Positions 5,488 through 53,542 of a DNA stretch of 64,000 nt are shown piece by piece (position 1 is the stretch's first letter; each line of letters starts with the position of its first letter). The translations under genes and the position numbers were made by a program. The notes below the pieces were generated by a model. It saw only the letters and a list, made by a program, of their open reading frames with translations, was not told the DNA's origin and made no database searches. This stretch comes from Lolium rigidum. Taxonomy: Eukaryota > Streptophyta > Magnoliopsida > Poales > Poaceae. The stretch lies in the NCBI RefSeq assembly GCF_022539505.1, contig NC_061510.1, positions 275,734,330-275,798,329 of the forward strand. Reading direction: 5' to 3'.

Positions 5488-6370
5488 CATCCCCAAGCTT
5501 AGTTCTCGCTCGTCCCGAGCGAGGTAAAACGATAACAAAGATAATTTCGGAGTGACATGCCATCATAATCTTGATCATACTATTTGTAAAGCATATGTAG
5601 TGAGTGCAGCGATCAAAACAATGTGTATGACATGAGTAAACAAGTGAATCATAAAGCAAAGACTTTTCATGAATAGCACTTCAAGACAAGCATCAATAAG
5701 TCTTGCATAAGAGTTAACTCATAAAGCAATAATTCAAAGTAAAGGTATTGAAGCAACACAAAAGAAGATTAAGTTTCAGCGGTTGCTTTCAACTTATAAC
5801 ATGTATATCTCATGGATATTGTCAACATAGAGTAATATAATAAGTGCAATAAGCGAATATGTAGGAATCAATGCACAGTTCACACAAGTGTTTGCTTCTT
5901 GAGGTGGAGAGAAATAGGTGAACTGACTCAACATTGAAAGTAAAAGAATGGTCCTCATAGAGGAAAAGCATCGATTGCTATATTTGTGCTAGAGCTTTGA
6001 TTTTGAAAACATGAAACAATTTTGTCAACGGTAGTAATAAAGCATATGCATCATGTAAATTATATCTTATAAGTTGCAAGCCTCATGCATAGTGTACTAA
6101 TAGTGCCCGCACCTTGTCCTAATTAGCTTGGACTACCTGGATTATCACCGCAATACATATGCTTTAACCAAGTATCACAAAGGGGTACCTCTATGCCGCC
6201 CGTACAAAGGTCTAAGGAGAAAGCTCGCATTTGGATTTCTCGCTTTTGATTATTCTCAACTTAGACATCCATACCGGGACAACATAGACAACAGATAATG
6301 GACTCCTCTTTTAATGCTTTAAGCATTCAACAACAATTAATTCTTTTCTCATTAGAGATTTGAGGATGTT
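5488..6370 (-). mobile_element. F1a internal 3' region (non-coding)
   Basis: Matches, in reverse, the last part of the F3 internal region (about 29750-30631). It holds the polypurine tract next to the LTR and a hairpin at 5505-5523 (arms CTCGCTCG and CGAGCGAG). No coding sequence is seen. It runs into the assembly gap. Confidence 0.8.
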
Positions 6371-6470
6371 NNNNNNNNNNNNNNNNNNNNNNNNNNNNNN
6401 NNNNNNNNNNNNNNNNNNNNNNNNNNNNNNNNNNNNNNNNNNNNNNNNNNNNNNNNNNNNNNNNNNNNNN
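6371..6470. other. Assembly gap, 100 N
   Basis: Exactly 100 N, a conventional placeholder for a gap of unknown size. Similar repeats lie on both sides (Athila-like internal DNA to the left, LTR to the right), which is the kind of place where assemblies collapse or mis-join. Confidence 0.98.
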
Positions 6471-6680
6471 TTCGTCGAATTCCGAGAATATTGCCCGAAC
6501 AGCCTTTCCGGAACCAAAAACAACGAGAAAACGAGGAGCGGCACGTCGGCATCTTGTTAATAGGTTAGTTCCGGAAAATGCATAAAATCATTATAAAGTG
6601 TGAGCAAAACATGTAGATATTGTCATAAAACTAGCATGGAACATCAGAAATTATAGATACGTTGGAGACGTATCACTATG
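6471..6680 (-). mobile_element. Athila-like LTR fragment, minus
   Basis: The LTR 5' portion on the minus strand, starting TGATACGTCTCCAACG at 6680. It abuts plus-oriented internal sequence of the same family at 6681, so it is the outer edge of a minus element inserted into a plus element. The rest is lost in the gap. Confidence 0.75.
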
Positions 6681-7695
6681 CATGTTCGTCTTGTCTGAAG
6701 TAAGGGCGATATATCATGATCAAATGGTTTGAGTATGCATATTGTTAGAGGAGAACATTGGGCCGCTAACTAAAGCCATGAATCATGGTGGAAGTTTCAG
6801 TTTGGACACTAATCCTCAATCTCTTATGAGAATATTATTTGTTGTTGAATGCTTATGCATTAAAGATGAGTCCATTATCTGTTTTCTATGTTGTCCCGGT
6901 ATGGATGTCCTTAGTTGAGATCTATCAAAAACGAGAAATCAAATGCGATTTATCTCCTTGGACCTTTGTACGAGGCGGCATAGAGGTACCCCTTTGTGAC
7001 ACTTGGTTGAAACATATGTTATGCAATGATAATCCATGTAAATCCAAACTAATTAGGACAAGGTGCGAGCACTATTGGTATTCTATGCATGAGGCTTGCA
7101 ACTTATAGGATGTCTTATGCATAACACATATGAATTATTACTACCGTTGACAAAATTGTTTCTTTGTTTTCAAAATAAAAGCTCTAGCACAAAAATAGTA
7201 ATCGATGCTTCCCTCTGCGAAGGGCCATTCTTTTACTTTATGTTGAGTCAGTTTACCTACTTCTTTCTATCTTAGAAGCAAACACTTGTGTCAACTGTGT
7301 GCATTGATTCCTACATACTTGCTTATTTGCATTCATCATATTACTTTGTGTTGACAATTATCCATGAGATATACATGTTAAAGTTGAAAGCAACCGCTGA
7401 AACTTATATCTTCCTTTGTGTTGCTTCAAAACTTTCTACTAAGAATTTATTGCTTTATGAGTTAACTCCTATGCAAGTCTTATTGATGCTTGTCTTGAAA
7501 GTACTATTCATGAAAAGTCTTTGCTATATGATTCGGTTGTTTAATCATTGTCTTTATCATTGCTTCGAATCACTTCATTCATCTCATATGCTTTACAATA
7601 GTATTGATCAAGATTATGATAGCATGTCACTTCGAAATTATCCTTGTTATCGTTTACCTACTCGAGGGCGAGTAGGAACTAAGCTTGGGGATGCT
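6681..7695 (+). mobile_element. F1b internal 3' region (non-coding)
   Basis: Corresponds to the F3 internal region from about 29619 to 30631. It ends with a hairpin (7657-7676, arms CCTACTCG and CGAGTAGG) and the polypurine tract AAGCTTGGGGATGCT before the LTR. Open frames here (for example 7288-7698) are fortuitous. Confidence 0.8.
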
Positions 7696-9282: not shown

Positions 9283-9621
9283 AGCTCTTTTCTGGCGCCG
9301 TTGCCGGGGAGATCAAGACACGCTGCAAGGGGAGTCTCTCACATCCAATCTCTTTACTTTGTTTATTGTATTGCTTTACTTTATTTTATTTTCTGTTTTG
9401 TTTGCTTTCTCTATATCAAAAACACAAAAAATTTAGTTACTTGCTTTACTTTATTTACTGTCTTGTTTGCTTCTTATATCAAAAACAAAAAAAAGTTAGT
9501 TACTTGCTTTACTTTATTTTATTTAGTTTGCTTTACTTGTCTTTATTACTGTTAAAATGAATACTCCTGAGAACACTAAGTTGTGTGATTTCACTAGCAC
9601 CAATAATAATGATTTTATATG
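9283..9621 (+). mobile_element. F1b leader, PBS and gag start
   Basis: A primer-binding site TGGCGCCGTTGCCGGGGA (9293-9310) matches the 3' end of plant tRNA-Asp. An A/T-rich leader follows with two to three imperfect tandem copies of a CTTTACTTTATTTACTG / ATATCAAAAACAC unit (about 9350-9530). A gag start ATG lies at 9557 (MNTPENTKLCDF...), cut off after about 22 codons where element X begins. Confidence 0.75.
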
Positions 9622-9886
9622 CACTCCTGACGTCAACAGTTGCCTGTGGAACAGATGGACCACGACTGCTACTACTTCGTTTCCGCTATGTGTTTTGTAA
9701 TAGGATCTCTAGATCCACTATGATGTATTAAGACTGGATCATGTGATCCTTTGTTGTAAGACGATTATGTCTTGTAATGAATGATGTGTTGTGATATCAA
9801 TCTATTATGTCTCGCAAAAACAATATTCCTTGGATTGCGATGAATGGCATAATAGGCATCTGGACTTAAAAATCCGGGTGTTGACA
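9622..9886 (+). mobile_element. Element X: LTR copy 1, 3' remnant
   Basis: 265 bp identical in layout to the ends of X LTR copies 2 and 3, ending GGTGTTGACA at 9886 before a primer-binding site. Its 5' part is missing. The junction with F1b shares the 7-mer CACTCCT (9622-9628), also present at the same place in copies 2 (14474-14480) and 3 (62433-62439). Confidence 0.85.
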
Positions 9887-10583
9887 AGTTGGTATCAGAG
9901 CCATTGTTTGACCTTAGGAGACCCTAGTTAGAATGGACGTCTGAAAAACTTAGTTTCCAAAACAAATGAATGGAATATTTATGAAAACTTATTCTCACTC
10001 TTATCCTTGAGATCTTTTCAAAATGAGAAATCCATGCTCTACTTTTTCTTGAGATTCTACCTAAAATTTTGCACACTTGATCCCTTTAGTAGAACTCACA
10101 CCTACGCAAGAGAGCACTAGTGTGAGTTTGGTATTAGGATTCCCTTGTATCGTAGAGCGAATGAATGGTTCTTCAAACCAACAGTGTGTTAGATACGTAA
10201 TGTGTGATGTTTGGTATGAATGAAAAAGTGTTGTTGGTTTTTACCCCCTCAACGCTACTCAAGTTTTGAAACTTTTCAAATTCTTATCCAAACAAACCCT
10301 AGAAAAATTCCCTCTCATCTTGTGACTTGCTATGAGTGTCCCAAGAAGATGATGAAGACAGCCCCAAATACCACTGCCCCTGCCCAGCAACAGCGCCGTG
10401 TCTCAACTGGACGGAACCCGAACAACCGCAACGGTCGTTACTACCGCATGAATGCAACAGAAGCACAAGAAGCACCTCAGGCCATGCCAAGTATGTCTCC
10501 TTTTAATCCAATTGCTCAATCTCTCTTAGAAACCTAACTTTTCTTAAAATCTCGGGACGAGATTTTTTTAAGGGGGAAGGGTT
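9887..10583 (+). mobile_element. Element X: internal region, copy 1
   Basis: A 697-bp internal domain. It has a primer-binding site TGGTATCAGAGCC at 9890-9902 (initiator tRNA-Met), a non-coding leader, a short gag relic, a hairpin (10546-10566) and the polypurine tract TTTAAGGGGGAAGG before the next LTR. Protease, RT, RNase H and integrase are all missing. Confidence 0.85.
10220..10537 (+). pseudogene. X gag C-terminal relic, copy 1
   Basis: A 105-residue open frame. Its C-terminal half (CYECPKK, then Gln/Arg/Asn-rich, then NATEAQEAPQAMPS) resembles the stretch after the zinc knuckle of Tekay/Del-type chromovirus Gag, with the middle of the knuckle lost. The N-terminal half shows no recognisable domain. 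The same frame occurs in copy 2 with two substitutions near KKMM/KKLM, so the deletion preceded the tandem arrangement. Unlikely to act as a Gag. Confidence 0.6.
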
Positions 10584-13500
10584 TGTAACACCCCAACTTT
10601 TTGAAACAAATAAAAAACAATTTCCAATTAATCAATTTTGAGGGTTAACAAAAACTTTTCTATTTTAAAACCCTTTTCTGGTGTGTGAATGAATGAAATG
10701 CTTGTTAATGACATAAATGTGTGTTTTAAGTCTTTCAATTTGTTTCTAAGCCCTAACCATGCAAGTAGGAAACAAAGAGAAACAATTTAGAAATAAAATA
10801 AAATAAAAAGAGAAGCACATATAAGCCTATGGCTATAGTTAAAAATGAATGTCTATGCCATGTTTTAATTTGTTAGAGGATTTGAACACATTAATAAACC
10901 CTACCTAGTACTCACCCACTCAATTTCAAAGTGAAACAAAAAGAAATAAAAATAAATTAAAATCTTCCATAGAGCTAAATATGAGTATTTGGCCAATTTT
11001 CAAAATGGATCCTATGCCCTATCTTTTTGGTTAGCAATGCTTGAACACCTCTCTATATCATTATATCATCACACAACACCATTTGGAGCAAAGCAAAAGT
11101 CAAACAAATCAAAAGAAAAATGAAAAACCCTAGGGCATATGATAATGGTAAAATCTGCCATTTTTAATATCATACCCACTTTGATCCATTTTATTAAGAG
11201 TTTCTTAAACCAAACCTTGCCAAATCTTTGCCCCTCATCCAAGACATCATCAAGATGAACATTTTTTGTGTTGACCACATTGACCAAATCATTGACCATT
11301 GCTCACAATAGTCAATCCAAAATGCCACTTTAACACAAATTCTAGATTCCCCCAAATTATAAAATTTTCACAAATCAATTCCAAATCCCAAACCAATGCC
11401 ACACATTGCTGCCCAACATCATTTAGAACACATCCATCACGAAAATTGATCAAAATTCATCACACATGAGACCATAGCAAATAATCAAATTAATGCCATA
11501 GAGTACAACCACTATTCCAACAACTATTCACACCTCACCCTCTCTCTCTCTCTTTGAGCTCATCCATAGTACCTTGTACCTCCAACCACCCACCATGACA
11601 TCACTTAACTTTGACATCATCAACATGAACCAAGATAAGCCAAGTACATGGCCTATGTCACACACACTTTTGCATAAATAAAATATGACCACCCTAGACC
11701 CCTCTCACCATGCACACCATGTCTAATAGATGTCTCTCACTCCCCTGAACACTACCATATCAGAGTTGACCCAAGGCACCCACTTGCACCATCCACGCCC
11801 AGCACATGCCAGGATCGGCATGGACGCGCACGGTGACGTCCCAGAGCGCGACACCACTTCGCCCCGTCGCCTCCCACCCTCTCTCACTCTCTCCTTGCCC
11901 CTGCACGATCTCCTCGACGTCAGCAACACTGTAGACATGCTCACTGGCTCGCTAGAGCACTGTAGCCAACGCCACCGTCGCCGTCCTCCGCCACGGGTAC
12001 GCCAGACATGACGATCTCCTGCAAGCCTCCGTCAACCCCTGTCCTCGCCGTGACGCGCGATAGCACCGCCTCGACGTCGCCTACAGGACGCAACCACTCC
12101 CTTGCCCCTTCGCCGCCCGTAGCGCCATCGCCACCATGACCTGCTCCGCACCTCCACGGCCACCACTCGCCACTATAAAAGCATGCCGCCCCGAGACGAT
12201 TTCTTCACATCCTCGCGCTCCCCTCTTCTCACTCGCTCTCCTCGACCTCTTGCTGCACCACATTAGCCACCACGCCGCCGCAATTTGGCCGGAGTCCGCC
12301 ACTGCAGCAGCTCGACGAAGCCGACGATCCCGAGCACCCCTGGAGCCGCCGCGACCCTCCTTTTCGAATTATTCAATTTACTCACAGATGCTGTTTTCAA
12401 AATTGAATAGAATAAAATCCACCAAACCAAATTTGACAAATTTTATATATTTGGAAATAGTATCAAATTATCTACACAACCCCACTGGTCTCACCCTTAA
12501 ATTGTTTGTAGAATTAAAGTGACAAAAATAACAAGGCAGGGACTTTTGCAACTTCAAACAATTATTAAAAATCAACCAAAAATGCTTTTGAGTTGATTCC
12601 AACTCTCAAAAATCATATTTCACATGGTCTATCAGAATATATAAAAATATGACATAGTTGTTTGTATGATCATGGTCTAGATTTGAAAATGGCTCTAGGG
12701 CTAATTCTAGTCCATTTAAATTGATCTAAATAAATTATTAAATATTATGAGAGCTATTCTCTCATTTAAATCTTGTATCCAATAACTCAATATGAGGTAG
12801 GGACCATGGTCTATTAAATCTCATATTGAATTATTTGATGACCTTAAATAATTACTATGTTAGGATTAAATTGTATGAGGGAGCACCTCATTTAAATTAT
12901 TTTCCCAACTGATGATTATGAAGAAGTTGACCTTGGTCAACCTAAGTCATATAGTATTAATTAAGGGAATTAAATCTGAACCAGATTCAATGAGAGGAAA
13001 TTATTTCTCCAAAGAATTAAATAGCAACACTAAATAATATATTGTAATGAGAGGAAATTATTTTTATGAAAGAAGAAAACAAAGTCAACCAACATAATAA
13101 TAATGTTGTGATGCTAGCCTAGCTTGTGTGACTCATGTGTGTGCTTAGCCTAGTGCTTAAGTTTTGTTTGTGATGGTATGTATCGTATTCGTTTTTAGAC
13201 GCTAGTACCGAGGAGTATCCAGAGGAGGAGGAGGTCTACTTCCAAGGAGAAGAAGACCACTTTGATCAATACACCAACCAAGGCAAGCTAATATTCTTGC
13301 AAAGTGCAAAGCTCTACAAGAGCAAGGCATCACCACATTTTGCTTTATGCTTAATGAGCCTATCCCAAGTTTTTACTTACAAGCTTTATTGCTTTGTTTT
13401 ATCAAAATATTTTTTTTTGATTCATGATTCACTTGGTCTAGAGTAGAACAAGATCATCAAAGTTAGCCTATGGCAATCAAAGCTAGCTAGCACCCCTCAT

Positions 13501-14738
13501 GACTAGTTGCTAGTGCTAACAAATAAAATTAAATACTCTAGGTGGGAACAGGTGAAATGAAATGACTTTGAAAACGTTGGAATGATGATTCATTCTATTG
13601 AAAGATTTTGAAGGTGAATATGACTGGTGAATGACATGGTGAACTTTACAAAAACTGATGGTTGGGTTCGGATGCGATACCATTCCAATTTACAAGTACC
13701 CCCACAATACCCGATTATGGGTAGGGCTTAACTGGAAGTTTATGTGTCTTAGTATGGGTTCCCTCTAAACAAGCGTCATCGGGGTTATGCCGAAAGCTGC
13801 CTCTACAACAAAAGAAATGATGTGAAATGACGTGAAATGAGGTGAATGTCCGGCCCAAGCCCCAGTGCGGTTCCCGAGCTAACTGTCTGTCTTCACTGGG
13901 AGGCCAAGCTCATGGAGAGAGGTGCCTATACTAGGATATGTAAGTGAAAGGTTATGGTTGATGATCCACGTACCGAGTTACGATTATTCAGGGTTATCCT
14001 GACGGATGTAATCAAATGTTGTGGCACAAGTGTGCAACCTCTGAAGAGTGTAAAACTATTCGAATAGCAGCGTCCACGGTTAAGGACGGTTGGAAAGGCC
14101 ATACTGTTCCGTCATCAGAACTTTTCAAAAATGTGACATGTGAAGGGTGACTTATGACTTGAACTTGAAAAGTGAATGGTGAATTTGACTTGAATTACAA
14201 CAAAGTTGTGGGAATGACACTAATGTTCCCACTTGAGTTAGTTAGCAAATGAAGAGGCTTTTATTAAATGTTTGTGAACTAAAATTGGCTTTATGCAAAT
14301 AACCTTAGAGCTTAGCACCCACTTACTATAGTTGATAGTGCTTACACTAGTATTAGTTTGCGAGTACTTTAAAGTACTCATGGCTTTGTCCCTAGCTATT
14401 CAAATGGCCAGACTATGAAGGAGAACAGCAGTACGAGGAAGATTGACAGCAGGACGTCTATGACAACTAGGACCACTCCTGACGTCAATAGTTTCCTGTG
14501 GAACAGATGGACCACGACCGCTACTACTTCGTTTCCGCTATGTGTTTTGTAATAGGATCTCTAGATCCGCTATGATGTATTAAGACTGGATCATGTGATC
14601 CTTTGTTGTAAGACGATTATGTGTTGTAATGAATGATGTGTTGTGATATCAATCTATTATGTCTCGCAAAAACAATATTCCCGGGATTGCGATGAATGGC
14701 ATAATAGGCATCTGGACTTAAAAATCCGGGTGTTGACA
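10584..14738 (+). mobile_element. Element X: LTR copy 2, complete
   Basis: A 4155-bp LTR from TGTAACACCCC to GTGTTGACA. It contains a CT microsatellite (about 11537-11554), a GC-rich block with a sense TATA box (TATAAAA, 12174-12180) and a pyrimidine-rich presumed leader. Compared with copy 3 it lacks about 330 bp after the leader (junction near 12364, between CCCTCCTT and TTCGAATT). The exon-like stretch near 13200-13290 (EEYPEEEEVYFQGEED in one frame) has no homology I recognise. Confidence 0.85.
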
Positions 14739-15435
14739 AGTTGGTATCAGAGCCATTGTTTGACCTTAGGAGACCCTAGTTAGAATGGACGTCTGAAAAA
14801 CTTAGTTTCCAAAACAAATGAAGGGAATATTTATGAAAACTTATTCTCACTCTTATCCTTGAGATCTTTTCAAAATGAGAAATCCATGCTCTACTATTTC
14901 TTGAGATTCTACCTAAAATTTTGCACACTTGATCCCTTTAGTAGAACTCACACCTACGCAAGAGAGCACTAGTGTGAGTTTGGTATTAGGATTCCCTTGT
15001 ATCGTAGAGCGAATGAATGGTTCTTCAAACCAACGGTGTGTTAGATCTGTAATGTGTGATGTTTGGTATGAATGAAAAAGTGTTGTTGGTTTTTACCCCC
15101 TCAACGCTACTCAAGTTTTGAAACTTTTCAAATTCTTATCCAAACAAACCTTAGAAAAATTCCCTCTCATCTTGTGACTTGCTATGAGTGTCCCAAGAAA
15201 TTGATGAAGACAGCCCCCAATACCACTGCCCCTGCCCAGCAACAGCGCCGTGTCTCAACTGGATGGAACCCGAACAACCGCAACGGTCGTTACTACCGCA
15301 TGAATGCAACAGAAGCACAAGAAGCACCTCAGGCCATGCCAAGTATGTCTCCTTTTAATCCAATTGCTCAATCTCTCTTAGAAACCTAACTTTTCTTAAA
15401 ATCTCGGGACGAGATTTGTTTAAGGGGGAAGGGTT
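14739..15435 (+). mobile_element. Element X: internal region, copy 2
   Basis: 697 bp, the same length as copy 1 and nearly identical, with the same primer-binding site, gag relic (15072-15389), hairpin (15399-15417) and polypurine tract. It is followed directly by LTR copy 3. Confidence 0.85.
15072..15389 (+). pseudogene. X gag C-terminal relic, copy 2
   Basis: Second copy of the 105-residue frame described for copy 1. It ends SLLET at the same place relative to the polypurine tract. Confidence 0.6.
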
Positions 15436-15497
15436 TGTAACACCCCAACTTTTTGAAACAAATAAAAAACAATTTCCAATTAATCAATTTTGAGGGT

Positions 15498-16973
15498 TGA
15501 TGTCTACGGGTGCTTCTATTCTTGTAGACAATGTTGGGCCTCCAAGAGCAGAGGTTTGTAGAACAGCAGCAAGTTTCCCTTAAGTGGATCACCCAAGGTT
15601 TATCGAACTCAGGGAGGAAGAGGTCAAAGATATCCCTCTCAAGCAACCCTGCAATCACGATACAAGAAGTCTCTTGTGTCCCCAACACACGTAATACACT
15701 TGTCAGATGTATAGGTACACTAGTTCGGCGAAGAGATAGTGAAATACAAGTGGTATGAATGAATATGAGCGAGTAGTAACGGCGCCGAGAAAAGTGCTTG
15801 CTGGCGTGCGGTTGATGGTAGTAATATTGCAGGAAGTAAAGATGCGGTAAAACGATAAACAAGCGATGATTGCGGTATTTGGAAACAAGGCCCGGGGATC
15901 ATACTTTCACTAGTGGACACTCTCAACATTGTAATCATAAAGGAATATAAATAAGCACTTCACTATGCTACTCCGAATTACTCTACGGCAAGATAACGAA
16001 CACTAATTCATCATGTAGGCAAACCTTAAAGATGCATTCCCAAGTACTAATGAACACCCCACGCTGTCACTTTGAGCATTCATAGGAGGTACTAACACAC
16101 CACAATTTCATAGAGACATCCAACTCAAATCATAACTCAGCGAATAAGTATTCTGTGAAATATAGCCTAAGAGACCCACACGGTGCACAAACTGTCACCT
16201 TTACACACGTGGGACAAGGAGTCTCCGGAGATCACATAAGTAAAATCCACTTGAATAGCATAATGACATCTAGATTACAAACTCATCATATGGATCTCAA
16301 TCATGTAAAGCAGCTCATGAGATCATTGTATTGAAGTACATAGGAGAGAGATTAACCACATAGCTACCGGTACAGCCCATAGCCTCGATGGAGAACTACT
16401 CCCTCCTCATGGGAGACAACAGCGTTGATGAAGATGACGGTGGTGTTGATGGAGAAGCCTTCCGGGGGCACTTCCCCGTCCGGCGGCGTGCGGGAACGGA
16501 GACTCCTGTCCCCCAGATCTTGGCTTCGCGATGGCGGCGGCTCTGGAAGGTTTCTCGTACCGTGGCTTTTCCGTATCGAAGATTTAGGTCAGGGACCTTT
16601 ATATAGGCGAAGAGGCGGAGTCGGAAGGCTGACGAGGCGATGACACAATAGGGGGGCGGGGCCCACCCCTGGCCGCGCCAGCATGGTGTGTGGGGCCCCT
16701 GGGCCTCCCCTCTGGTGGCTCTCGGGTGTTCTGGAAGCTTCGTGGAAAAATAGGATGCTGGGCATTGATTTCGTCCGATTCCGAGAATATTTCCTTACTA
16801 GGATTTCTGAAACCAAAATCAGCAGAAAACAGCAACTGGCCCTTCAGCATCTCGTCAATAGGTTAGTTCCGGAAAACGCATCAAAACGATATAAAGCGTG
16901 AACAAAACATGTAGGTATTGTCATAAAACAAGCATGGAACATAAGAAATTATAGATACGTTTGAGACGTATCA
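15498..16973 (-). repeat. F2 3' LTR
   Basis: On the minus strand it starts TGATACGTCTCAAACG at 16973. Near its far end TGTCTAC and GTAGACA (about 15500-15530) form a 7-bp inverted repeat. Confidence 0.88.
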
Positions 16974-18266
16974 AGCATCCCCAAGCTTAGTTCCTACTCG
17001 CCCTCGAGTAGGTAAACGATAACAAGGATAATTTCTGAAGTGACATGCTATCATAATCTTGATCAATACTATTATAAAGCATAAGAGATGAATGCAGCGA
17101 TTCAAAGCAATGGTAAAGACAATGATTAAACAACTGAATCATATAGCAAAGACTTTTCATGAATAGTACTTTCAAGACAAGCATCAATAAGACTTGCATA
17201 ATAGTTAACTCATAAAGCAATAAATTCTTAGTAAAAGCATTGAAGCAACACAAAGGAAGATATAAGTTTCAGCAATTGCTTTCAACTTGTAACATGTATA
17301 TCTCATGGATAGTTGTCAACATAAAGCAATATAACAAGTGCAATAGGTAAACATGTAAGAATCAATGCACACAGTTGACACAAGTGTTTGCTTCTGAGAT
17401 AGAAATAAGTAGGTAAACTGACTCAACATAAAGTAAAAGAAAGGCCCTTCGCAGAGGAAGCGAGGATTAAATCATGTGCTAGAGCTTTTTAAGTTTTGAA
17501 ATCATATAAAGAGCATAAAAGTAAAGTTTTGAGAGGTGTTTGTTATTGTCAACGAATGGTAATGGGTACTCTAACTACCTTATCAACCAGACTTTCAAGA
17601 GCGGCTCCCATGAAGGACGTTATCTCTACCAGCAAGGTAGATCATCCCTCTTCTCTTTTGTTTACACATGTATTTTAGTTCCATTATTTATGGATGACAC
17701 TCCTCCCAACCTTTTGCTTACACAAGCCATAGCTAACCGAATCCTCGGGTGCCTTCCATCGTTCACATACCATGAAGGAGTGTCTATTTGCAAAATTAAG
17801 TTGCTTACTGATAGATCAGGGAAAAGCATGTGAAGAGAATTATTAATGCAAGTTAATTAATTGGGGCTGGGAACCCCGCTGCCAGCTCTTTTTGCAAAGT
17901 TATTGGATAAGCGGATGAAGCCACTAGTCCATTGTGAAAGTCTGTCAAAAGTAAATGACAAGATCGAAAGATAAAACACCACATACTTCCTCATGAGCTA
18001 TAAAACATTGACACAAATAAGAGATAATAGCTTTTGAATTGTTTAAAGGTAGCACATGAAGTATTTGCTTGGAATGGCAGAGAAATACCATGTGGTAGGT
18101 AGGTATGGTGGACACAAATGGCATAGTTTTTGGCTCAACGATTTGGATGCACGAGAAGAATTCCCTCTCAGTACAAGGCTAGGCTAGCAAGGTTGTTTGA
18201 AGCAAACTCAAGTATAAAACGGTGCAGCAAAGCTTACATATGAACATATGGCAAGCATTATAAGAC
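16974..18266 (-). mobile_element. F2 internal, 3' portion
   Basis: Non-coding. It holds the polypurine tract (reverse, GCATCCCCAAGCTTAG) and a hairpin at 16993-17012. Interrupted at 18266 by E; AAGAC (18262-18266) is E's duplicated target. Confidence 0.8.
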
Positions 18267-19441: not shown

Positions 19442-19445
19442 CATT

Positions 19446-23776: not shown

Positions 23777-23812
23777 TTTTGGAATTACCAATTCCAAAAC
23801 CAGGGGGGCATG
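23777..23812 (+). other. E hairpin plus polypurine tract
   Basis: A perfect inverted repeat (arms TTTTGGAATT and AATTCCAAAA, loop ACC, 23777-23799) is followed by the G-run polypurine tract CAGGGGGGCATG (23801-23812) directly before the 3' LTR. Confidence 0.75.
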
Positions 23813-28069: not shown

Positions 28070-30631
28070 AGAAAAGCGCTTATGGGAGACAACCCATGTT
28101 TTTACTACAATACTTTTATTTTATATTTGAGTCTTGGAAGTTGTTACTACTGTAGCAACCTTTCCTTATCTTAGTTTTGTGCATTGTTGTGCCAAGTAAA
28201 ATCGTTGATAGTAAGGTTCATACTAGATTTGGATTACTGCGCAGAAACAGATTTCTTTGTCGTCACGAATCTGGGCCTAATTCTCCGTAGGTAACTCAGA
28301 AAATTATGCCAATTTACGTGAGTGATCCTCGGATATGTACGCAACTTTCATTCAATTTGGGCATTTTCATTTGAGCAAGTCTCGTTGCCACTTTAAAATT
28401 CGTCTTTACGAACTGTTCCGTTTTGATAGATTCTGCCTTTTATTTCGCATTGCCTCTTTTGCTATGTTGGATGAATTTCTTTGTTCCATTAATGTCCAGT
28501 AGCTTTGTGCAATGTCCGGAAGTGTTAAGAATGATTATGTCACCTCCGAACATGTAAATTTTTATTGTGCACTAACCCTCTAATGAGTTGTTTTGAGTTT
28601 GGTGTGGAGGAAGTTTTCAAGGATCAAGAGAGGGAAATGATACAATATGATCAAGGAGAGTGAAAGCTCTAAGCTTGGGGATGCCCCGGTGGTTCACCCC
28701 TGCATATTTTAAGAAGACTCAAGCGTCTAAGCTTGGGGATTCCCAAGGCATCCCCTTCTTCATCGACAACATTATCGAGGTTCCTCCCCCGAAACTATAT
28801 TTTTATTCCATCACATCTTATGTGCTTTGCTTGGAGCGTCGGTTTGTTTTTGTTTTTGTTTTTGTTTGAATAAAATGGATCCTAGCATTCATTGTGTGGG
28901 AGAGAGACACGCTCCGCTGTTGCATATGGACAAATATGTCCTTAGGCTTTACTCATAGTGTTCATGGCGAAGGTTGAATCTTCTTCGTTAAATTGTTATA
29001 TGGTTGGAATCGGGAAATGCTACATGTAGTAATTCTAAAATGTCTTGAATAATTTGATACTTGGCAATTGTTGTGCTCATGTTTAAGCTCTTGCATCATA
29101 TACTTTGCACCTATTAATGAAGAAATACATAGAGCTTGCTAAATTTGGTTTGCATAATTGGTCTCTCTAAAGTCTAGATAATTTCTAGTATTGAGTTTGA
29201 ACAACAAGGAAGACGGTGTAGAGTCTTATAATGTTTACAATATGTCTTTTATGTAAGTTTTGCTGCACCGGTTCATCCTTGTGTTTGTTTCAAATAACTT
29301 TGCTAGCCTAAACCTTGTATCGAGAGGGAATACTTCTCATGCATCCGAAATCCTTGAGCCAACCACTATGTCATTTGTGTCCACCATACCTACCTACTAC
29401 ATGGTATTCTCCGCCATTCCAAAGTAAATTGCTTGAGTGCTACCTTTAAAATTTCCATTCTTTACCTTTGCAATATATAGCTCATGGGACAAATAGCTTA
29501 AAAACTATTGTGGTATTGAATATGTACTTATGCACTTTATCTCTTATCAAGTTGTTTGTTGTGCGATAACCATGTTCCTGGGGACGCCATCAACTACTCT
29601 TTGTTGAATATCATGTGAGTTGCTATGCATGTCCGTCTTGTCTGAAGTAAGGGAGATTTACCACTCATTTAATGGTTAGAGCATGCATAATGTTAGAGAA
29701 GAACATTGGGCCGCTAACTAAAGCCATGAATCATGGTGGAAGTTTCAGTTTTGGACATACATCCTCAATCTCATATGAGACCATTAATTGTTGCTACATG
29801 CTTATGCATTAAAGAGGAGTCCATTATCTGTTGTCTATGTTGTCCCGGTATGGATGTCTAAGTTGAGAATAATCAAAAGCGAGAAATCCAAATGCGAGCT
29901 TTCTCCTTAGACCTTTGTACAGAGCGGCATAGAGGTACCCCTTTGTGACACTTGGTTAAAACATGTGTATTGCGATGATAATCCTGGTAATCCAAGCTAA
30001 TTAGGACAAGGTGCGGGCACTATTAGTATACTATGCATGAGGCTTGCAACTTGTAAGATATAATTTACATGATACATATGCTTTATTACTACCGTTGACA
30101 AAATTGTTTCTTGTCTTCAAAACCAAAGCTCTAGCACAAATATAGCAATCAATGCTTCCTCTCGCGAAGGGCCTTTCTTTTACCTTTATGTTGAGTCAGT
30201 TCACCTATCTCTCTCCACCTCAAGAAGCAAACACTTGTGTGAACTGTGCATTGATTCCTACATACTTGCATATTGCACTTGTTATATTACTTTACATTGA
30301 CAATATCCATGAGATATACATGTTATAAGTTGAAAGCAACCGCTGAAACTCAATCTTCCTTTGTGTTGCTTCAATACCTTTACTTTGATTTATTGCTTTC
30401 TGAGTTAACTCTTATGCAAGACTTATTGATGCTTGTCTTGAAAGTACTATTCATGAAAAGTCTTTGCTTTGTGATTCATTTGTTTACTCATGTCATTACC
30501 ATTGTTTTGATCGCTGCATTCATTACATATGCTTACAATAGTATGATCAAGGTTATGATGGCATGTCACTTCAGAAATTATCTTTGTTATCGTTTACCGC
30601 TCGGGACGAGCAGAACTAAGCTTGGGGATGC
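28070..30631 (+). mobile_element. F3 internal non-coding region
   Basis: 2.5 kb with no coding sequence I can support. It contains two extra polypurine-like motifs AAGCTTGGGGAT (28671-28685, 28729-28740) besides the true tract at 30618-30631, and a GGA-loop hairpin at 30599-30611. Confidence 0.75.
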
Positions 30632-38300: not shown

Positions 38301-38802
38301 CTAATATTCTTGCAAAGTGCAAAGCTCTACAAGAGCAAGGCATCACCACATTTTGCTTTATGCTTAATGAGCCTATCCCAAGTTTTTACTTACAAGCTTT
38401 ATTGCTTTGTTTTATCAAAGTATTTTTTTTTTGATTCATGATTCACTTGGTATAGAGTAGAACAAGATCATCAAAGTTAGCCTATGGCAATCAAAACTAG
38501 CTAGCACCCCTCATGATTAGTTGCTAGTGCTAACAAATAAAATTGAATACTCTAGGTGGGAACATGTGAAATGAAATGACTTTGAAAACCTTGGAATGAT
38601 GATTCATTCTATTGAAAGATTTTGAAGGTGAATATGGCTGGTGAATGACATGGTGAACTTTACAAAAACTGATGGTTGGGTTCGGATGCGATACCATTCC
38701 AATTTACAAGTACCCCCACAATACCTAATTATGGGTAGGGCTTAACTGGAAGTTTATGTGTCTTAATATGGTTTCCCTCTAAACAAGCGTCATCGGGGTT
38801 AT

Positions 38803-43713: not shown

Positions 43714-44098
43714 GCCTTTCCCCCTTAAAGAAAACTTCGTCCCGAAGTTGTGGTTGTAATACATGAACAGTTCGGGGTATGTTTTCCTCAGGTCTTCTTC
43801 CTTTTCCCAGGTGGCTTCCCTCTCGGGGTGATGCTTCCATTGTATCTTGCAATACTTGATCGCTTTATTTCTGAGTTGTTTCCAGCTTTCCTCGAGAATC
43901 TTGGCTGGCTTCTCGATGTAAGTCAAATCTGGTTGTAACTCGAGCTCTGCATGTGATATTGGCTCATCCGGGGTCTTTAAGCATTTCCTGAGTTGCGACA
44001 CATGGAATACATTGTGAACTTGTGCTAGCCTTCCCGGTAGATCCAATTCAAAGGCTAAACCTCGGTTCTGACTCAATATCTTGAAAGGTCCTATATAT
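43678..44098 (-). pseudogene. Y pol C-terminus: chromodomain
   Basis: Encodes the integrase tail (LPGRLAQVHNVFHVSQLRKC) and a chromodomain (IEKPAKILEESWKQLRNKAIKYCKIQWKHH, split here in description only). Chromodomains of chromovirus integrases are known to steer insertion to heterochromatin. The frame is offset by one base from the integrase part at 44105-44108 (CTCG where CTG fits). The frame runs through the polypurine tract and stops 36 bp inside the LTR. Confidence 0.8.
43714..43749 (-). other. Y polypurine tract and hairpin
   Basis: Minus strand: a hairpin with arms AACTTCG and CGAAGTT and loop GGA (43733-43749), then TTTAAGGGGGAAAGG, then the LTR. The hairpin lies inside the coding frame. 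Confidence 0.8.
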
Positions 44099-45881
44099 CT
44101 AGGACTCGAGCTTTCCTTTTACTCCAAACCTCTGAAGTCCTTTCATCGGGCTTACCTTAAGATATACCATGTCTCCAACTCGTGGCTCCCATGTTCTCCT
44201 CTTCTGATCAGCATAACTCTTTTGCCGACTTTGGGCTATCTTGAGCCTGTCTTTTATAATATCAATGATGTGTTGTTTTTCCTTGACATAATCAGGATTG
44301 AACTCCTTGCTTGCTCCGGCTTCATACCAACATATCGGTGATCTACACTTTCTTCCATAGAGAGCTTCAAATGGTGCCATCTTGATGCTACTTTGATAGC
44401 TATTATTGTATGAAAACTCTGCTAGTGGCAAGTGCTCTTCCCACGATCCTTCGAAGTCTAGGGCACAAGCCCTAAGCATATCCTCTAAGATCTGGTTGGT
44501 TCTCTCGGTTTGTCCACCGGTCTGTGGATGATAAGCGGTACTATAGTCTAACTTGGATCCTAAAGCTTCGTGAAGTTGCTTCCAGAATGCTGATGTGAAC
44601 ACGGATCCACGATCCGACACGATCTTCTTGGGCACTCCATGCTTACTCACAATCTCTTTGATGTAAAGATCGATGAGTTTCTCTCCTTTATCCTGCTGAT
44701 TTACCGCTAAGAAGTGGGCGCTCTTCGTCAACCGGTCCACGATTACCCATATCATGTCCTTCTTTTTATTAGTCATGGGTAGTCCGGTGATGAAATCCAT
44801 CCCTATTTCTTCCCATTTCCACTCTGGAATAGGTAAAGGTTGTAACTTCCCTGCCGGACTCTGGTGTTCAGCCTTCACTCTCTGGCAGGTATGGCATTCT
44901 GCCACATATTGTGCTATCTCCCTCTTCATATTATTCCACCAGAATAGTTCCTTTAAGTCCATGTACATCTTTGTACTTCCCGGATGTATTGAATATGGTG
45001 TTTGATGAGCTTCCCGGAGTATTACTTCCTTAATTTCAGCAATATCCGGAACGCAAATTCTTTTCTGGAACCATAATGATCCAGACTCTCCGCGGTGAAA
45101 TTCTGATGGTCTTCCCTCATCTATTCTCCTCATCTCCTCCATGATGAATGGATCATCCATTTGACCCATCATTATCACATTCTTCAGGTTGACATTCAAC
45201 TCATCGGCTACTTGCAACGCCGATAATCCTTCATGGGCTTCTTTCTCCCAAAGTTGTATTTGGGCTTGACTTATTTCCTTCCTCAACTCCGGTGATATTT
45301 CTTGTTCCACTCCTCCGGTACTCTTCCTACTCAGGGCATCTGCTACAACATTAGCCTTCCCTGGTGTGTAATTGATTGTCAGGTCATAATCTTTGATCAA
45401 TTCTAGCCATCTTTTCTGTCTCATGTTGAGTTCCTTCTGAGTGAAGAAATATTTGAGACTTTTATGGTCTGTATAGAGCTCACACTTAGCTCCATAAAGA
45501 AAATGTCTCCAAGTTTTGAGTGCAAATACGACTGCTGCTAATTCCAAGTCATGTGTTGGATAATTCACTTCATGAGGTCTGAGTTGTCTCGATCCATAAG
45601 ATATCACTTTTCGATCTTGCATGAGTACGCAACCCAATCCATGTTTGGATGCGTCACAGTACACGGTGTAATCCTTGCCAACTTCCGGAACTGCTAACAC
45701 CGGTGCTGTGGTGAGTTTCTCTTTTAGAGTTTGAAAACTCTTCTCACACTCATCAGACCATACAAATGGTGTATTCTTCCTTAACAACTTCGTCATTGGT
45801 CCTGCTATTTTGGAGAATCCTTCAATGAACCTCCGGTAATATCCTTCCATTCCGAGAAATCCTCGGATTTCCTTGACGATC
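44099..45881 (-). pseudogene. Y pol: RT thumb, RNase H, integrase
   Basis: A 583-codon open frame. It begins with the end of RT ([20 protein letters not shown]), then RNase H ([14 protein letters not shown] ... [16 protein letters not shown] ... [11 protein letters not shown]), and an integrase with an HHCC zinc finger (ending [12 protein letters not shown]) and the catalytic D,D,E triad ([26 protein letters not shown]). It joins the RT core across a one-base break at 45907-45910 (CTCG where CTG fits). Apart from that break and the one at 44105 the sequence looks functional. Confidence 0.88.
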
Positions 45882-46746: not shown

Positions 46747-47079
46747 TCAACTTCCATCGGGGCTTTTCAAAGACACCGTCTTGCTCACACAGTCGATCAA
46801 TGCTCCATTAGCTTCCAACCAGTTCATACCAAGAATGACATCAATGTCCTTCATCGGTAAAATGAACAGGTCCGCGTCAAACGCGCACTTATTGATCATA
46901 ATGACTTGTTTTTGTTTGGCATGGGTTACTACTATCGTTCCCCCGCGGAAAGTATGGTTATGGGTGTATCTAACTTAGTGCAACTAATTCCATGTTTGAT
47001 GATGAATTGTTGAGAAATGAATGATGTAGTTGCACCAGTATCAAAAAGTACTTTGCCAGGATGAGTGAGTATCTGGAGC
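46747..47079 (-). pseudogene. Y aspartic protease, part 3' of Z insertion
   Basis: Encodes HPGKVLFDTGATTSF, the retropepsin DTGA motif, and the following core including [10 protein letters not shown] inserted just upstream of the protease start (GTACC duplicated); coding continues at 53927. Confidence 0.8.
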
Positions 47080-47084
47080 GTACC

Positions 47085-49723: not shown

Positions 49724-52700
49724 ATGGATAGCGAAGATGAAGATACGGAGGAGTACATGGAGCACTTCAAGGAGGATACCTCTTCAAGCACCGCGGATGT
49801 GGAGGAACATGTGGAGCTCGACACCGACCATGGCTCCACGAGCATCACCGACATGACCGACATCGAGGAGCTCTACATCGACAATGGCTCCTCAAGCATG
49901 GATGACATGGTGGAGCACCACCTTGAGGACGACGTCGACGAGCTCTACATCGACAATGGCTCACCACTCATGGACGACAGGGTGGAGCAACGCCACGAGT
50001 ACGACATCGACACCATGGCGGAGCCTCACATACGCTCCACGATGAGCAAAGACGATGCTCCTACATACCCCTACTTGGCAAATGGAGCTACATATGAAGA
50101 TGGAGGACCTCCACGAGGGCACCATCATATGGATCGTCAAGAGCGTCCCCATCATGAGCGTCATCGACACACTTCTTCGAGCTCCACAAGGCGCCACCAT
50201 GAGAGTGCTTATGCACATGATCATCTACGGCGAGTTCATCATATGGAGCATCAAGAGCGTCCCCAACATGATCGTCATCGACACTCTTCTCCAAGCTCCA
50301 CAAGGCGCCACAAGCACTATGCCAAGTCGCATGAGCCATCATCATCTCGACATGCCAAGGACCGTCGTCGACTCACACCATCTCATGATAGTCGTCGACC
50401 ACTACCACCTCATGGTCTACATCGACATACGTCACGACACGAGCCTCGCCGCCACAAGCCACTTCATGAGCGCCATCGACCAACATCTTCCACGGATCTT
50501 CGACGACACTCATCAAGACATGGTGATGAAGCACGAAGACGAGAGCCTCGACATGAAGGCGACAAACGCCATGATAGGGTGCCTACTACTCCAAGGATGG
50601 CAAGTGCACATCGCGCATACCTTCCTCATGAGGCGACTTCCACCTCTTGTGCCACCACCACAATGGCCCCTACCTCGTCACATGCCTATGGACTCCGATG
50701 CTACAAGTGCAAGCAACAAGGCCACCCTCCACGGGAATGTCCCAATCTCCTATGTGAGGTGTGCAAGGCCAAGGGTCATGTGGCATGGCAATGCACAACG
50801 CCAAGCGCCAAGAAGCTCTACTTCGACAAGCTACAAGCACAAGCCACCAAGAAGCCTTTAGCGCCCACACTTCAAGATGAAGATCGCCAAGGTGAACTCA
50901 AGGGCGAAGTTGAGCCGAGCCTAGCTCTCATCAACACCATGGCGCCACCGCTTGAGGATGACTTGGGAGGCGATGGAGTTGAGCATGGTGAGCATGGGAT
51001 TCTCCCTTCACCTACGGAGGCGCATGGAGTTGAGATGGTTGAGCATGGGAATTTCCCTTCAACCAAGGAGGCGCATGGAGATGAGAAAGTCGAGCCTACT
51101 CCCCTATGCTTCATTGATGAGTTGGTACCAATCCCATGTGAGAATGAGAGCCACTTAGCCCACTTGAGTGAGAGTGATGGTGAGTTGAGTGACTTCCACC
51201 CCATATGTGAGTTTGAGTGCTTCCATTTGGAGGACATGAGTGATACACAAAGTTCCACGGAGGATGAGTTCCCGATTATGGAGACGATGTACATGGTGCA
51301 TGAAGATGATGATATCTCACCATGCTTGCTCCAAGACGGACATGTCGACCACATGGATCCTCCTACTTCCACAACACCTACCTCAAATGAGTCGGCCTAC
51401 AAAGGTAACAACATAGGTGTTGATGATGCCATGATCCCACTAGTGGACATGATGACTTATGAGTGCATGCATGATCTTGATGATACATTTGCTACGTCAC
51501 ATGCTACTTTCATTTTCCCATGCGATACTTTGCTTGATAACATTGTTGATCATGTGGAAGTGAATGCTTGTGATACCATGACCATGCCATGCTATGAGAG
51601 CTTCCAATTTTCCACCATTGCTTGCAATATGTCGACCACTTGCTCTTTACCATGTATTGCTTGCAATGATAATGACAAGGATGACATTAGCTTCCGCATG
51701 CTTTGTCCAAAATGCTTACACCATTCCATGATCCTTGCATCCAAGATTGTGAAAAATTGCTCTTTCTTATGCTTGGTATGCAAGAATGCTTATTTCATTG
51801 TTCACGAGATGGCCCCCATAGCCTTCTCACTTTTTGATGATCATGAGTTACCACATGCCATGAATGCACCTTCTTGCCATATGCACCATCGCCATGCATT
51901 TCATACTATCTTGATTGACACTAATGGTGATGTGCACAAGACATGGAACATCATGATGGATGATGTGTTCCTCTACCATGCACACACGCTTTTTGTTTTC
52001 TCTTTTGTGTGTATAGGTACCCGAATGACTACTTCCACCGCTACGGAGCATGATCTCACGAAACGCGCAATAGAGAGCTACCCCAACAAGGACCTAACCC
52101 GCGGGAATCACACCAAAGGGTATGTTCCCACAAGCCTTCGCCCTCATGTGTTTCCGACTTGTCTTGTCGAGCTTCCGGTTTGGTCCAATTCCTCGTCACC
52201 TCTTTTGCTTCTTATGCAACACATCTTGACACATCTTGTTGGCACAATGGTTGTTGTATGTCGTGATGATATCATCATACACTTCGAGATTCTCAAGGAC
52301 CATGTCATACATGTGAGAGACACCTTATGCATCTTGTGCCACATGTCACACAAAAAGTTGCTCTTCTTTGGATTTCTCATTTTATCTTTGGCAATTGCAA
52401 TGGATTCGTTCACACTTGAGGACACTCATACTCGGCTCAAGCCAACCACACTCTCCCAAGTTCGAAGTCTCCACCGCTTTGCCATTGCACATAACAATTT
52501 TGCCCCAAATTTTGCCGTCGATACTTGCCTTTTGATTGTTCCATTTGTGTGGGACAATGCTACACCACACATTTTTGACACCTTACAACTCTTACATGCA
52601 CAAATTTTTGCCCTACCACATTTTGGATACATCGACACTCTTTTGGTTCCCATTTTTGCCACATGCCTCTTGGAGAAACGACTTGATGCTTCGTATTTGA

Positions 52701-53542
52701 TTGAGAGCCTCTTGTTCACCGATCACCAATTTGGCATGCACAAGCTTTCCTTTCGCAAGTTGTTTTTCCCCAAGCTCTTCTTCGACCGCGACTTTATCCC
52801 TCTACCACAACATGGGACAAGCGTCATGGACTACACCGTCGGTGAGGAGGAACAAGAGTCGAGGACGACTCTTCCCCAAGGGGGAGATGATGTAGCCCCG
52901 CCTATCGTCGACACTACACCATGGCCAAGGAGTCCCCCAAGTGGACCAACAAGCGCAACCCCGCCTATCATCGACGCTACACCATGGCCAAGGAGTCCCC
53001 CAAGTGGACCAACAACACAAACCCCCGCAATATATGTCAAGGTGAACCCTTTCCTCTCTATGGTCGACCTCAACACCAACGTGAATGGTATGCTACCTCA
53101 TGCCTATCATCATTGTGTCTATAGGTGCCGACATCGACAAGGACCAAGAGAGAAGGAACTCCCATGGTGCAAGGAAGAGGAGAAGAAGAAGGAAGAGGAA
53201 GAAGAGGCGGGAGGAAGAGGCCCAGCCTGGCCGGTCCAGGACCCGGTCGGACCGGACCCACAACCGGCCCGTCCGGTCCCTGGCCCGGTCAACCGGGCGC
53301 CCAACCGGCGCGGCTCCCTCGTGCGGGCGAAGACCGGAAACCTCGCAGCTTTCCGGTTTCGCGACCGGTCGGCCGGACCCGGGACCGGACAGCCCGGTCC
53401 ACGAGCCCGGTCGGACCGGACCCAAACCGGATCCGACGGGAATGACCCACCAAACGGCCCAAGTCGGTCCATCACTTACCTGTTCGGCCCAAGCTGCCTT
53501 GTATGCCTATATAAGCACCTAGGTCACCCCTTACCTCTTTAG
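49724..53542 (+). CDS. Z ORF: zinc-knuckle protein with drifted RT-like region
   Basis: An uninterrupted 1272-codon frame. Residues 1-110 are acidic with a repeat (ELYIDNGSSSMDD / ELYIDNGSPLMDD). Residues about 135-290 are His/Arg/Ser-rich with repeated HRHTSSSSTRRH-type units. Two CCHC zinc knuckles follow (CYKCKQQGHPPREC at 326, CEVCKAKGHVAWQC at 344), indicating Gag-like nucleic-acid binding. After an acidic middle and Cys-pair motifs (CIAC, CPKC, CLVC, about 645-690), residues 820-960 resemble Ty3 RT in order: VVVCRDDIII, HVIHVRDTL, LFFGFLI, LSQVRSLHRF, PFVW, DTLQLL, ALPHF. The catalytic Y/F-x-D-D appears as C846-R-D-D. Residues after 1054 are encoded by the 3' LTR. It may be a self-packaging structural protein; the RT is probably inactive. 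Confidence 0.7.
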   Translation: MDSEDEDTEEYMEHFKEDTSSSTADVEEHVELDTDHGSTSITDMTDIEELYIDNGSSSMDDMVEHHLEDDVDELYIDNGSPLMDDRVEQRHEYDIDTMAEPHIRSTMSKDDAPTYPYLANGATYEDGGPPRGHHHMDRQERPHHERHRHTSSSSTRRHHESAYAHDHLRRVHHMEHQERPQHDRHRHSSPSSTRRHKHYAKSHEPSSSRHAKDRRRLTPSHDSRRPLPPHGLHRHTSRHEPRRHKPLHERHRPTSSTDLRRHSSRHGDEARRREPRHEGDKRHDRVPTTPRMASAHRAYLPHEATSTSCATTTMAPTSSHAYGLRCYKCKQQGHPPRECPNLLCEVCKAKGHVAWQCTTPSAKKLYFDKLQAQATKKPLAPTLQDEDRQGELKGEVEPSLALINTMAPPLEDDLGGDGVEHGEHGILPSPTEAHGVEMVEHGNFPSTKEAHGDEKVEPTPLCFIDELVPIPCENESHLAHLSESDGELSDFHPICEFECFHLEDMSDTQSSTEDEFPIMETMYMVHEDDDISPCLLQDGHVDHMDPPTSTTPTSNESAYKGNNIGVDDAMIPLVDMMTYECMHDLDDTFATSHATFIFPCDTLLDNIVDHVEVNACDTMTMPCYESFQFSTIACNMSTTCSLPCIACNDNDKDDISFRMLCPKCLHHSMILASKIVKNCSFLCLVCKNAYFIVHEMAPIAFSLFDDHELPHAMNAPSCHMHHRHAFHTILIDTNGDVHKTWNIMMDDVFLYHAHTLFVFSFVCIGTRMTTSTATEHDLTKRAIESYPNKDLTRGNHTKGYVPTSLRPHVFPTCLVELPVWSNSSSPLLLLMQHILTHLVGTMVVVCRDDIIIHFEILKDHVIHVRDTLCILCHMSHKKLLFFGFLILSLAIAMDSFTLEDTHTRLKPTTLSQVRSLHRFAIAHNNFAPNFAVDTCLLIVPFVWDNATPHIFDTLQLLHAQIFALPHFGYIDTLLVPIFATCLLEKRLDASYLIESLLFTDHQFGMHKLSFRKLFFPKLFFDRDFIPLPQHGTSVMDYTVGEEEQESRTTLPQGGDDVAPPIVDTTPWPRSPPSGPTSATPPIIDATPWPRSPPSGPTTQTPAIYVKVNPFLSMVDLNTNVNGMLPHAYHHCVYRCRHRQGPREKELPWCKEEEKKKEEEEEAGGRGPAWPVQDPVGPDPQPARPVPGPVNRAPNRRGSLVRAKTGNLAAFRFRDRSAGPGTGQPGPRARSDRTQTGSDGNDPPNGPSRSITYLFGPSCLVCLYKHLGHPLPL

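What the first reader, a model, noticed from the sequence alone, without database searches (positions are those of the whole stretch)
5505..52887. A hairpin sits directly before the polypurine tract in every retrotransposon whose 3' end is visible
Perfect inverted repeats lie 13-20 nt from the 3' LTR, just 5' of the polypurine tract, in nine of nine cases: F1a 5505-5523 (CTCGCTCG/CGAGCGAG), F1b 7657-7676 (CCTACTCG/CGAGTAGG), X copies 10546-10566 and 15399-15417 (AAATCTCG/CGAGATTT), F2 16993-17012, E 23777-23799 (TTTTGGAATT/AATTCCAAAA), F3 30599-30611 (GCTCG/CGAGC), Y 43733-43749 (AACTTCG/CGAAGTT), Z 52854-52873 (AAGAGTCG/CGACTCTT). Arms differ between lineages but always pair, while the loop in element sense is GGA in F1a, F3, X and Y. 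In Y it lies inside the coding frame, in the others outside. This covariation across unrelated Gypsy lineages suggests a selected RNA or DNA structure, perhaps one that sets the 5' edge of the plus-strand primer for RNase H. I do not know of a description of it.
Basis: seen in the sequence. Interest (0 to 1): 0.9.

Follow-up and report, generated by a model that had tools for sequence, protein, structure and literature searches.

The report
Conserved hairpin before retrotransposon DNA primer
Ty3-type jumping genes of ryegrass, and others likely from further plants and a moth, carry a short inverted repeat, predicted to fold into a hairpin, directly before the purine tract that primes their second DNA strand, and it likely helps the copying enzyme cut that primer at the right place.

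Summary
In detail: 9 of 9 listed 3' ends carry a perfect inverted repeat 13-20 nt before the 3' LTR. They come from five families, so nine is not nine independent cases. The window is from a Lolium-like genome. In that genome, 37 of 40 fetched junctions (of 496 matches), chosen only by purine tract plus LTR start, carry a perfect 7-8 bp stem. All 6 distinct plant-like Ty3 3' ends found in bacterial assemblies carry it, and so does one element likely from a moth. A more distant element (L129) has a weak version; another (L130) has none. In 15 hairpins 103 of 105 inner pairs are Watson-Crick, and no arm shuffle matched this. Y, Z and the moth element read the palindrome in three different frames, so protein selection does not explain it. 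Limits: RNA folding energies are ordinary; in the commonest (Athila-like) family only about 5 bp are reliably paired and outer arms assort freely; the E family departs in loop and one E copy has a broken stem. Most likely the hairpin pauses reverse transcriptase so that its RNase H sits over the primer's 3' cut site (inferred). Ten text searches showed no description.

The parts
5505..5523 (-). F1a hairpin CTCGCTCG-GGA-CGAGCGAG (element sense), 18 nt before LTR start
5487..5504 (-). F1a spacer with purine tract (AACTAAGCTTGGGGATGC)
7657..7676 (+). F1b hairpin CCTACTCG-AGGG-CGAGTAGG, 19 nt before LTR
7677..7695 (+). F1b spacer with purine tract
10546..10566 (+). X1 hairpin AAAATCTCG-GGA-CGAGATTTT, 17 nt before LTR
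   Evidence: family relatives
10567..10583 (+). X1 spacer with T-rich step and purine tract TTTAAGGGGGAAGGGTT
15399..15417 (+). X2 hairpin AAATCTCG-GGA-CGAGATTT, 18 nt before LTR
15418..15435 (+). X2 spacer with purine tract
16993..17012 (-). F2 hairpin CCTACTCG-AGGG-CGAGTAGG, 19 nt before LTR
16974..16992 (-). F2 spacer with purine tract
23777..23799 (+). E hairpin TTTTGGAATT-ACC-AATTCCAAAA, 13 nt before LTR; the only window family without the GGR loop
   Evidence: a second E-type copy (L162) has a broken stem
23800..23812 (+). E purine tract CCAGGGGGGCATG
30599..30611 (+). F3 hairpin GCTCG-GGA-CGAGC (5 bp), 20 nt before LTR
   Evidence: not rare against shuffles on its own (56 of 500)
30612..30631 (+). 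F3 spacer with purine tract
43733..43749 (-). Y hairpin AACTTCG-GGA-CGAAGTT, 19 nt before LTR
   Evidence: tails P0006-P0008
43714..43732 (-). Y spacer TTCTTTAAGGGGGAAAGGC with purine tract
52854..52873 (+). Z hairpin AAGAGTCG-AGGA-CGACTCTT, 14 nt before LTR, inside an open frame
52874..52887 (+). Z purine tract CCCCAAGGGGGAGA
44099..45850 (-). Y pol fragment: RNase H, integrase zinc-binding and core domains (Ty3 type)
49724..53542 (+). Z open frame, 1272 aa, weak CCHC zinc knuckle only; runs through the hairpin into the 3' LTR

Best explanation
The inverted repeat lies directly 5' of the plus-strand primer (polypurine tract) of these Ty3/gypsy elements, with paired arms that differ between lineages and a loop that usually ends in GGR; it likely works as a hairpin that makes reverse transcriptase pause just after copying the purine tract, which would hold its RNase H domain over the junction between the purine tract and the LTR, so that the primer's 3' end is cut precisely. 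Shown here: position, pairing, covariation between lineages, loop letters, spacing and independence of reading frame. Inferred: that the contaminant elements come from plants and a moth, that the repeat folds in the cell, that it pauses the enzyme, and that it aids the cut.
For: Position and spacing: in 14 of 16 hairpins the 3' base lies 16-20 nt before the LTR; E and Z have 13 and 14 (the L161 LTR start is inferred). A Ty3 review gives about 13 bp between the polymerase and RNase H sites (PMC5371799, passages). Another review says pausing at hairpin bases increases polymerase-dependent RNase H cuts (PMC3187697, passages). Structure rather than sequence: 103 of 105 inner pairs Watson-Crick in 15 hairpins and 0 of 20000 arm permutations as good (X1 and L122 share the same inner letters); outer pair G-C, A-T or T-A in Lolium subfamilies with different upstream sequence. 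Loop ends in GGR in 14 of 15. Not coding: the DNA of Y, Z and L142 reads the palindrome in three frames; relatives' tails such as NFEDEI, ISRTKF and ESRGRDS fit the same (back-translated, DNA not seen), and 14 of 17 tails picked by motif allow a stem of at least 7 bp round a GGA-ending loop. Specific to these junctions: in 264 kb, 12 of 55 (N)GGR-loop hairpins have a G-run within 22 nt downstream; 11 of the 12 are junctions of identified elements and the twelfth looks like one. None of 5 Copia junctions read (of 12 Copia loci) has an (N)GGR hairpin, although their purine tract is nearly the same.
Against: No functional data. Folding energies are not unusual (z from -1.9 to +0.9 over 10 stretches), and in Y and L121 the predicted minimum-energy fold is not this hairpin. 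In the commonest Lolium family only about 5 bp are reliably paired; outer pairs show no coupling and are often mismatched or T-G (13 of 94 at pair 6), which is weak for a strong pause site. No G-U pair among the 105 inner pairs across lineages is unexpected for selection on RNA alone and may point to DNA. E departs from the loop rule, and one E-type copy has a broken stem. L130 lacks a hairpin, so it is not universal. One Copia junction (L173) also has a short stem, 5 bp with loop CAG, 12 nt before its LTR. RNase H cuts at the purine tract are known to depend on the tract itself (PMC5371799, passages).
Confidence: 0.42

Rival explanations
1. The hairpin defines or guards the 5' edge of the primer: it would form in minus-strand DNA (or RNA) and stack on the purine-tract duplex, so that RNase H cuts stop there.
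For: The stem directly precedes the purine tract, in several elements with a short T-rich step between (X, Y, L122, L126, L127). The absence of G-U among 105 inner pairs fits a DNA-level structure. A TCTT step is proposed to help define the primer's 5' end in fission-yeast elements, and U-boxes matter in retroviruses and Ty1 (PMC10085805, passages).
Against: The hairpin often ends a few nt away from the purines themselves (X, Y, L122, L127), and precise 5' ends are not known to be needed for priming (recalled).
Confidence: 0.25
2. The hairpin is a binding site or packaging/dimer signal for an element protein (capsid, integrase or RT) that happens to sit at the 3' end of the RNA.
For: The loop letters (N)GGR are kept across lineages (14 of 15), as expected for a recognised loop.
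Against: The spacing to the LTR is tight (14 of 16 in 16-20 nt), which a packaging signal would not need; a proposed dimer site of Ty3 lies near the 5' end (PMC11381356, passages). GGA loops are not self-complementary.
Confidence: 0.13
3. Mutation, not selection: reverse transcriptase repairs imperfect palindromes by copying one arm from the other (templated correction), so arms stay paired without function.
For: Paired arms with no G-U intermediates across lineages; whole-arm replacement between Lolium subclasses (CCTACTCG/CGAGTAGG against CCTGCTCG/CGAGCAGG). The mechanism itself is recalled.
Against: It does not explain the place, the spacing and the loop letters, nor the lack of comparable stems in neighbouring windows (17 of 19 junctions). 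Mosaic arms persist in the F family, which correction should erase.
Confidence: 0.1
4. Coding constraint on the C-terminus of pol produces the repeat.
For: Several relatives read through it (NFEDEI and similar); Z has it in an open frame.
Against: Y, Z and L142 read it in three different frames. In element sense no stop-free run across it exceeds 44 codons in X, 70 in E and 140 in F, and in L129 it lies about 240 nt past the stop.
Confidence: 0.03

Closest known systems
[quoted passage not shown] 2010, PMC2829016; passages read)
   Same: Inverted repeat whose left arm borders the purine tract; the authors suggest it helps primer formation by RNase H
   Different: There the right arm lies inside the 3' LTR and the purine tract is in the loop; here both arms lie 5' of the tract, the loop is 3-4 nt, and the elements are Ty3/gypsy
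U-box/T-box upstream of the PPT in retroviruses and Ty1, and TCTT in fission-yeast Tf elements (cited in PMC10085805; passages read)
   Same: Conserved cis element immediately 5' of the PPT thought to affect plus-strand priming
   Different: Linear sequence, not an inverted repeat. Several elements here have a short T-rich step as well, between hairpin and purines
Proposed PPT-containing hairpins of LTR elements (Benachenhou et al. 2013, PMC3601003; passages read)
   Same: Calls for a systematic search for structures at the PPT in other LTR elements
   Different: Concerns hairpins with the PPT in the loop; none of the present type is described in the passages seen

Membership tests
Sirevirus/Pseudoviridae PPT inverted repeat | Right arm inside the 3' LTR, PPT within the loop | tested here: not met
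   Both arms lie 13 nt or more 5' of the LTR in 9 of 9 window cases
Ty3/gypsy (Metaviridae) elements | RNase H and integrase domains of Ty3 type in the element | tested here: met
   Met for Y: RT_RNaseH, RT_RNaseH_2, Integrase_H2C2 and rve; L121-L130 were found with a Y-type profile. Not shown for F, E and Z, whose scanned frames gave no pol domain, nor for X, which had no long frame to scan; their lineage rests on recalled primer-site and LTR letters
U-box type PPT flank | T-rich run directly 5' of the purines | tested here: inconclusive
   Present in X, Y, L122, L126, L127, and in the 40 Lolium junctions by their search pattern; weak or absent in F, E, Z, L121
Rfam RNA families | Match at or above a family's gathering score | tested here: not met
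   0 matches in the whole window
RT pause/RNase H positioning element (works like) | RT pauses at the stem base and cuts at the PPT/U3 junction | not testable with these tools
   Only spacing was measured

The most novel reading that the evidence does not exclude
A hairpin with an (N)GGR loop 16-20 nt before the 3' LTR is an ancient, overlooked standard part of the plus-strand priming machinery of Ty3/gypsy elements, older than the split of plants and animals, kept by covarying arms through all reading frames and reduced or lost only in some lineages.
Probability: 0.4. Interest if true: 0.88.

Novelty: new variant of a known kind. Interest (0 to 1): 0.78.

Why it matters
How reverse transcriptases find one purine tract among many and cut it at one exact bond is a long-standing question. 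A conserved structure at a nearly fixed distance upstream, present in very many copies of one genome, would be a simple positional answer and testable on short RNA templates. It would also give annotators a marker for the 3' end, strand and LTR start of Ty3 elements, including ones without detectable pol such as X.

Tried and rejected
Scans of viral contigs gave no Ty3 relatives: a loose DNA pattern returned loci I did not use and two protein scans none. Phage records gave one short match, not used. Text search for the hairpin letters returned 176 papers; among the 30 listed no title is about retrotransposons. RNA folding energy as a discriminator was dropped: not unusual. Rfam: nothing. Two Bacillus licheniformis 'plasmid' loci with weak pol matches: no (N)GGR hairpin before a purine tract was recognised in L143 (the script failed before L144) and no comparable junction in L144. 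Left out of counts: L125 (contig ends before the 3' end), L124 (same junction as L123), L177 (same letters again), and L178, which has a perfect 9-bp stem GGCTCTACC-CTC-GGTAGAGCC followed by a G-run but no identified LTR; with E it hints that some lineages keep the stem with another loop. The within-F covariation claim was rejected. A larger Copia control (pattern TTAAGGGGGAGATTGTTAG) was tried nine times and never answered; a Y-family pattern was tried twice and never answered. So the Copia control is 5 junctions of 12 loci; a sixth candidate, L172, was seen but not examined. Two further LTR pairs of another type, Copia-like by recall and untested, show only a 5-bp stem with another loop more than 30 nt away.

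Full report
Observation. In element sense each sits directly 5' of a purine tract and a 3' LTR, with perfect stems of 5-10 bp and 13-20 nt to the LTR. Self-comparison gives five families: F (four copies), X (two copies in one tandem array), E, Y and Z. The window belongs to a 2.44-Gb genome, and the best database match to Y is 97% identical, from Lolium multiflorum; I therefore call the genome Lolium. Shuffles match the stem in at most 12 of 500 for 16 of 19 junctions tested (9 from the window, 10 from elsewhere); F3, L129 and L130 are the exceptions.

Reading frame. Y carries Ty3-type RNase H and integrase. At the DNA level three elements read the repeat in three different frames: Y as TTC-GGG-ACG (frame taken from relatives P0006-P0008), Z as TCG-AGG-ACG (open frame of 1272 aa), and L142 with CGG-GAC-GAG. 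Other relatives' C-termini (NFEDEI, ISRTKF, ESRGRDS) fit the same palindrome in different frames, but there only protein was seen. Of 17 tails that I picked by motif, 14 allow a stem of at least 7 bp round a loop ending in GGA; P0066, P0136 and P0241 do not. Because they were picked by motif, this speaks for frame independence rather than frequency. In element sense no stop-free run across the hairpin exceeds 44 codons in X, 70 in E and 140 in F, and in L129 it lies about 240 nt beyond the stop.

Other genomes. A profile scan of bacterial assemblies found 10 Ty3 loci. Eight (L121-L128) are 53-60% identical to Y and are most likely plant contamination; seven include the 3' end, two of the seven share one junction, and all 6 distinct junctions have a perfect 7-9 bp stem with loop GGA, AGGA, GGGA or TGGA. 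L129 (33% identical; alga-like in my judgement, not tested) has CTCG-GGGA-CGAG; L130 (26%) has none. A 'Wolbachia plasmid' (NZ_CP087956.1) from the moth Corcyra is a Ty3 element with ATGCTCG-GGA-CGAGCAT 17 nt before its likely LTR start; that it belongs to the moth is my inference. Among insect-type tails P0123 and P0187 (Mythimna separata) allow stems of 9 and 7 bp; P0136 only 4. L178, from a further contaminated assembly, has a 9-bp stem with loop CTC before a G-run, but its LTR was not identified.

Covariation. For 15 hairpins (7 from the window, 8 from elsewhere; X1 and L122 share their inner letters), 103 of 105 innermost pairs are Watson-Crick, none is G-U, swapped arms pair at 3.2 of 7 on average, and 0 of 20000 permutations reach the observed sum. 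This permutation does not model relatedness.

Whole Lolium genome. A pattern for purine tract plus LTR start alone (TTTAAGGGGG, gap, TGTAACACCC) has 496 matches and none when read backwards. Of the places listed I fetched 40 (34 with other spacers, 6 X-like): 37 have a perfect 7-8 bp stem at 18-19 nt, and the 3 misses are single changes within the stem. The outermost pair is G-C, A-T or T-A by subfamily, while the sequence 5' of the stem differs between subfamilies. Two of the 37 have other loops (GGC, GGT) and two have a CG-to-TG change at the inner pair. For F, a pattern that leaves the hairpin open has 50,230 matches. Of the 100 listed, 94 keep the core TCG-loop-CGAG; stems are at least 7 bp in 52, 5-6 in 35 and 4 or fewer in 13; pair 5 is G-C in 60, A-T in 26 and unpaired in 8 of 94. 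Among 60 copies of the GGA class the three outer pairs show no coupling (87 of 180 against 87.4 expected). So inside F the requirement is a short core stem and the loop, and the apparent coupling reflects two subclasses.

Specificity. In 264 kb (window plus 200 kb from two other places) there are 55 hairpins with stem of at least 6 and an (N)GGR loop; 12 have a G-run within 22 nt, of which 11 are junctions of identified elements. The twelfth (L161) is followed by a purine tract and TGTGACATCATGACCC, likely another LTR. Of 12 Copia loci, 5 junctions with nearly the same purine tract were read: none has an (N)GGR hairpin there, though L173 has a 5-bp stem with loop CAG 12 nt before its LTR. A larger control could not be run.

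Mechanism. The distance from stem base to LTR (16-20 nt in 14 of 16) is close to, and a little longer than, the roughly 13 bp given for the polymerase-RNase H separation of Ty3 RT (PMC5371799, passages). Pausing at hairpin bases raises polymerase-dependent RNase H cutting (PMC3187697, passages). I therefore think the hairpin is a brake: RT stops after copying the purine tract and its RNase H then sits over the tract/LTR bond. This is inference. Against it stand the ordinary folding energies, the short stems in F, the lack of G-U pairs across lineages, which would fit a DNA structure, and the E family, whose loop is ACC and whose second copy has a broken stem. The same pause could favour template switching, which would account for the mosaic arms in F; untested.

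Literature. Ten text searches (listings) and passages of 15 papers showed no description of a hairpin wholly 5' of the PPT in Ty3/gypsy elements. The nearest is the Sirevirus inverted repeat with one arm in the LTR (PMC2829016, passages); PMC3601003 calls for a systematic search for PPT structures (passages). Most subscription papers are not in this library, so this is not proof of novelty. Labels such as Athila-like are recalled from primer-site and LTR letters and were not tested by phylogeny.

Noticed in passing
window 9622-15498, 35324-38802, 61609-62697: X is a tandem array (LTR about 3.4 kb, internal part about 1.47 kb, then LTR again) of an element without detectable pol, with F2 and Y nested in its second LTR.
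   Followed up: partly
window 49724-53542: Z carries a 1272-aa open frame with only a weak zinc knuckle and no pol domain; it runs 655 nt into the 3' LTR and the tail region has only 4 database relatives.
   Followed up: partly
window 38803-61631: Y has LTRs of 4.9 kb, 97.5% identical, with Z nested inside.
   Followed up: no
L142 (NZ_CP087956.1): A record named as a Wolbachia plasmid appears to be an insect Ty3/gypsy element, likely host contamination.
   Followed up: partly
L121-L128: Several bacterial genome assemblies hold contigs with plant-type Ty3 elements, likely contamination.
   Followed up: partly
L178:704-724: Perfect 9-bp stem with loop CTC, about 140 nt after a pol stop and before a G-run, in a further contaminant Ty3-type contig; may be the same feature with another loop.
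   Followed up: partly
rows, Lolium genome: In the F family, 5' and 3' arms of the hairpin occur in many mixed combinations, as if template switching took place at the hairpin.
   Followed up: partly
window 1047-2018 (minus): Copia-type Pol_BBD domain at the left end of the window.
   Followed up: no
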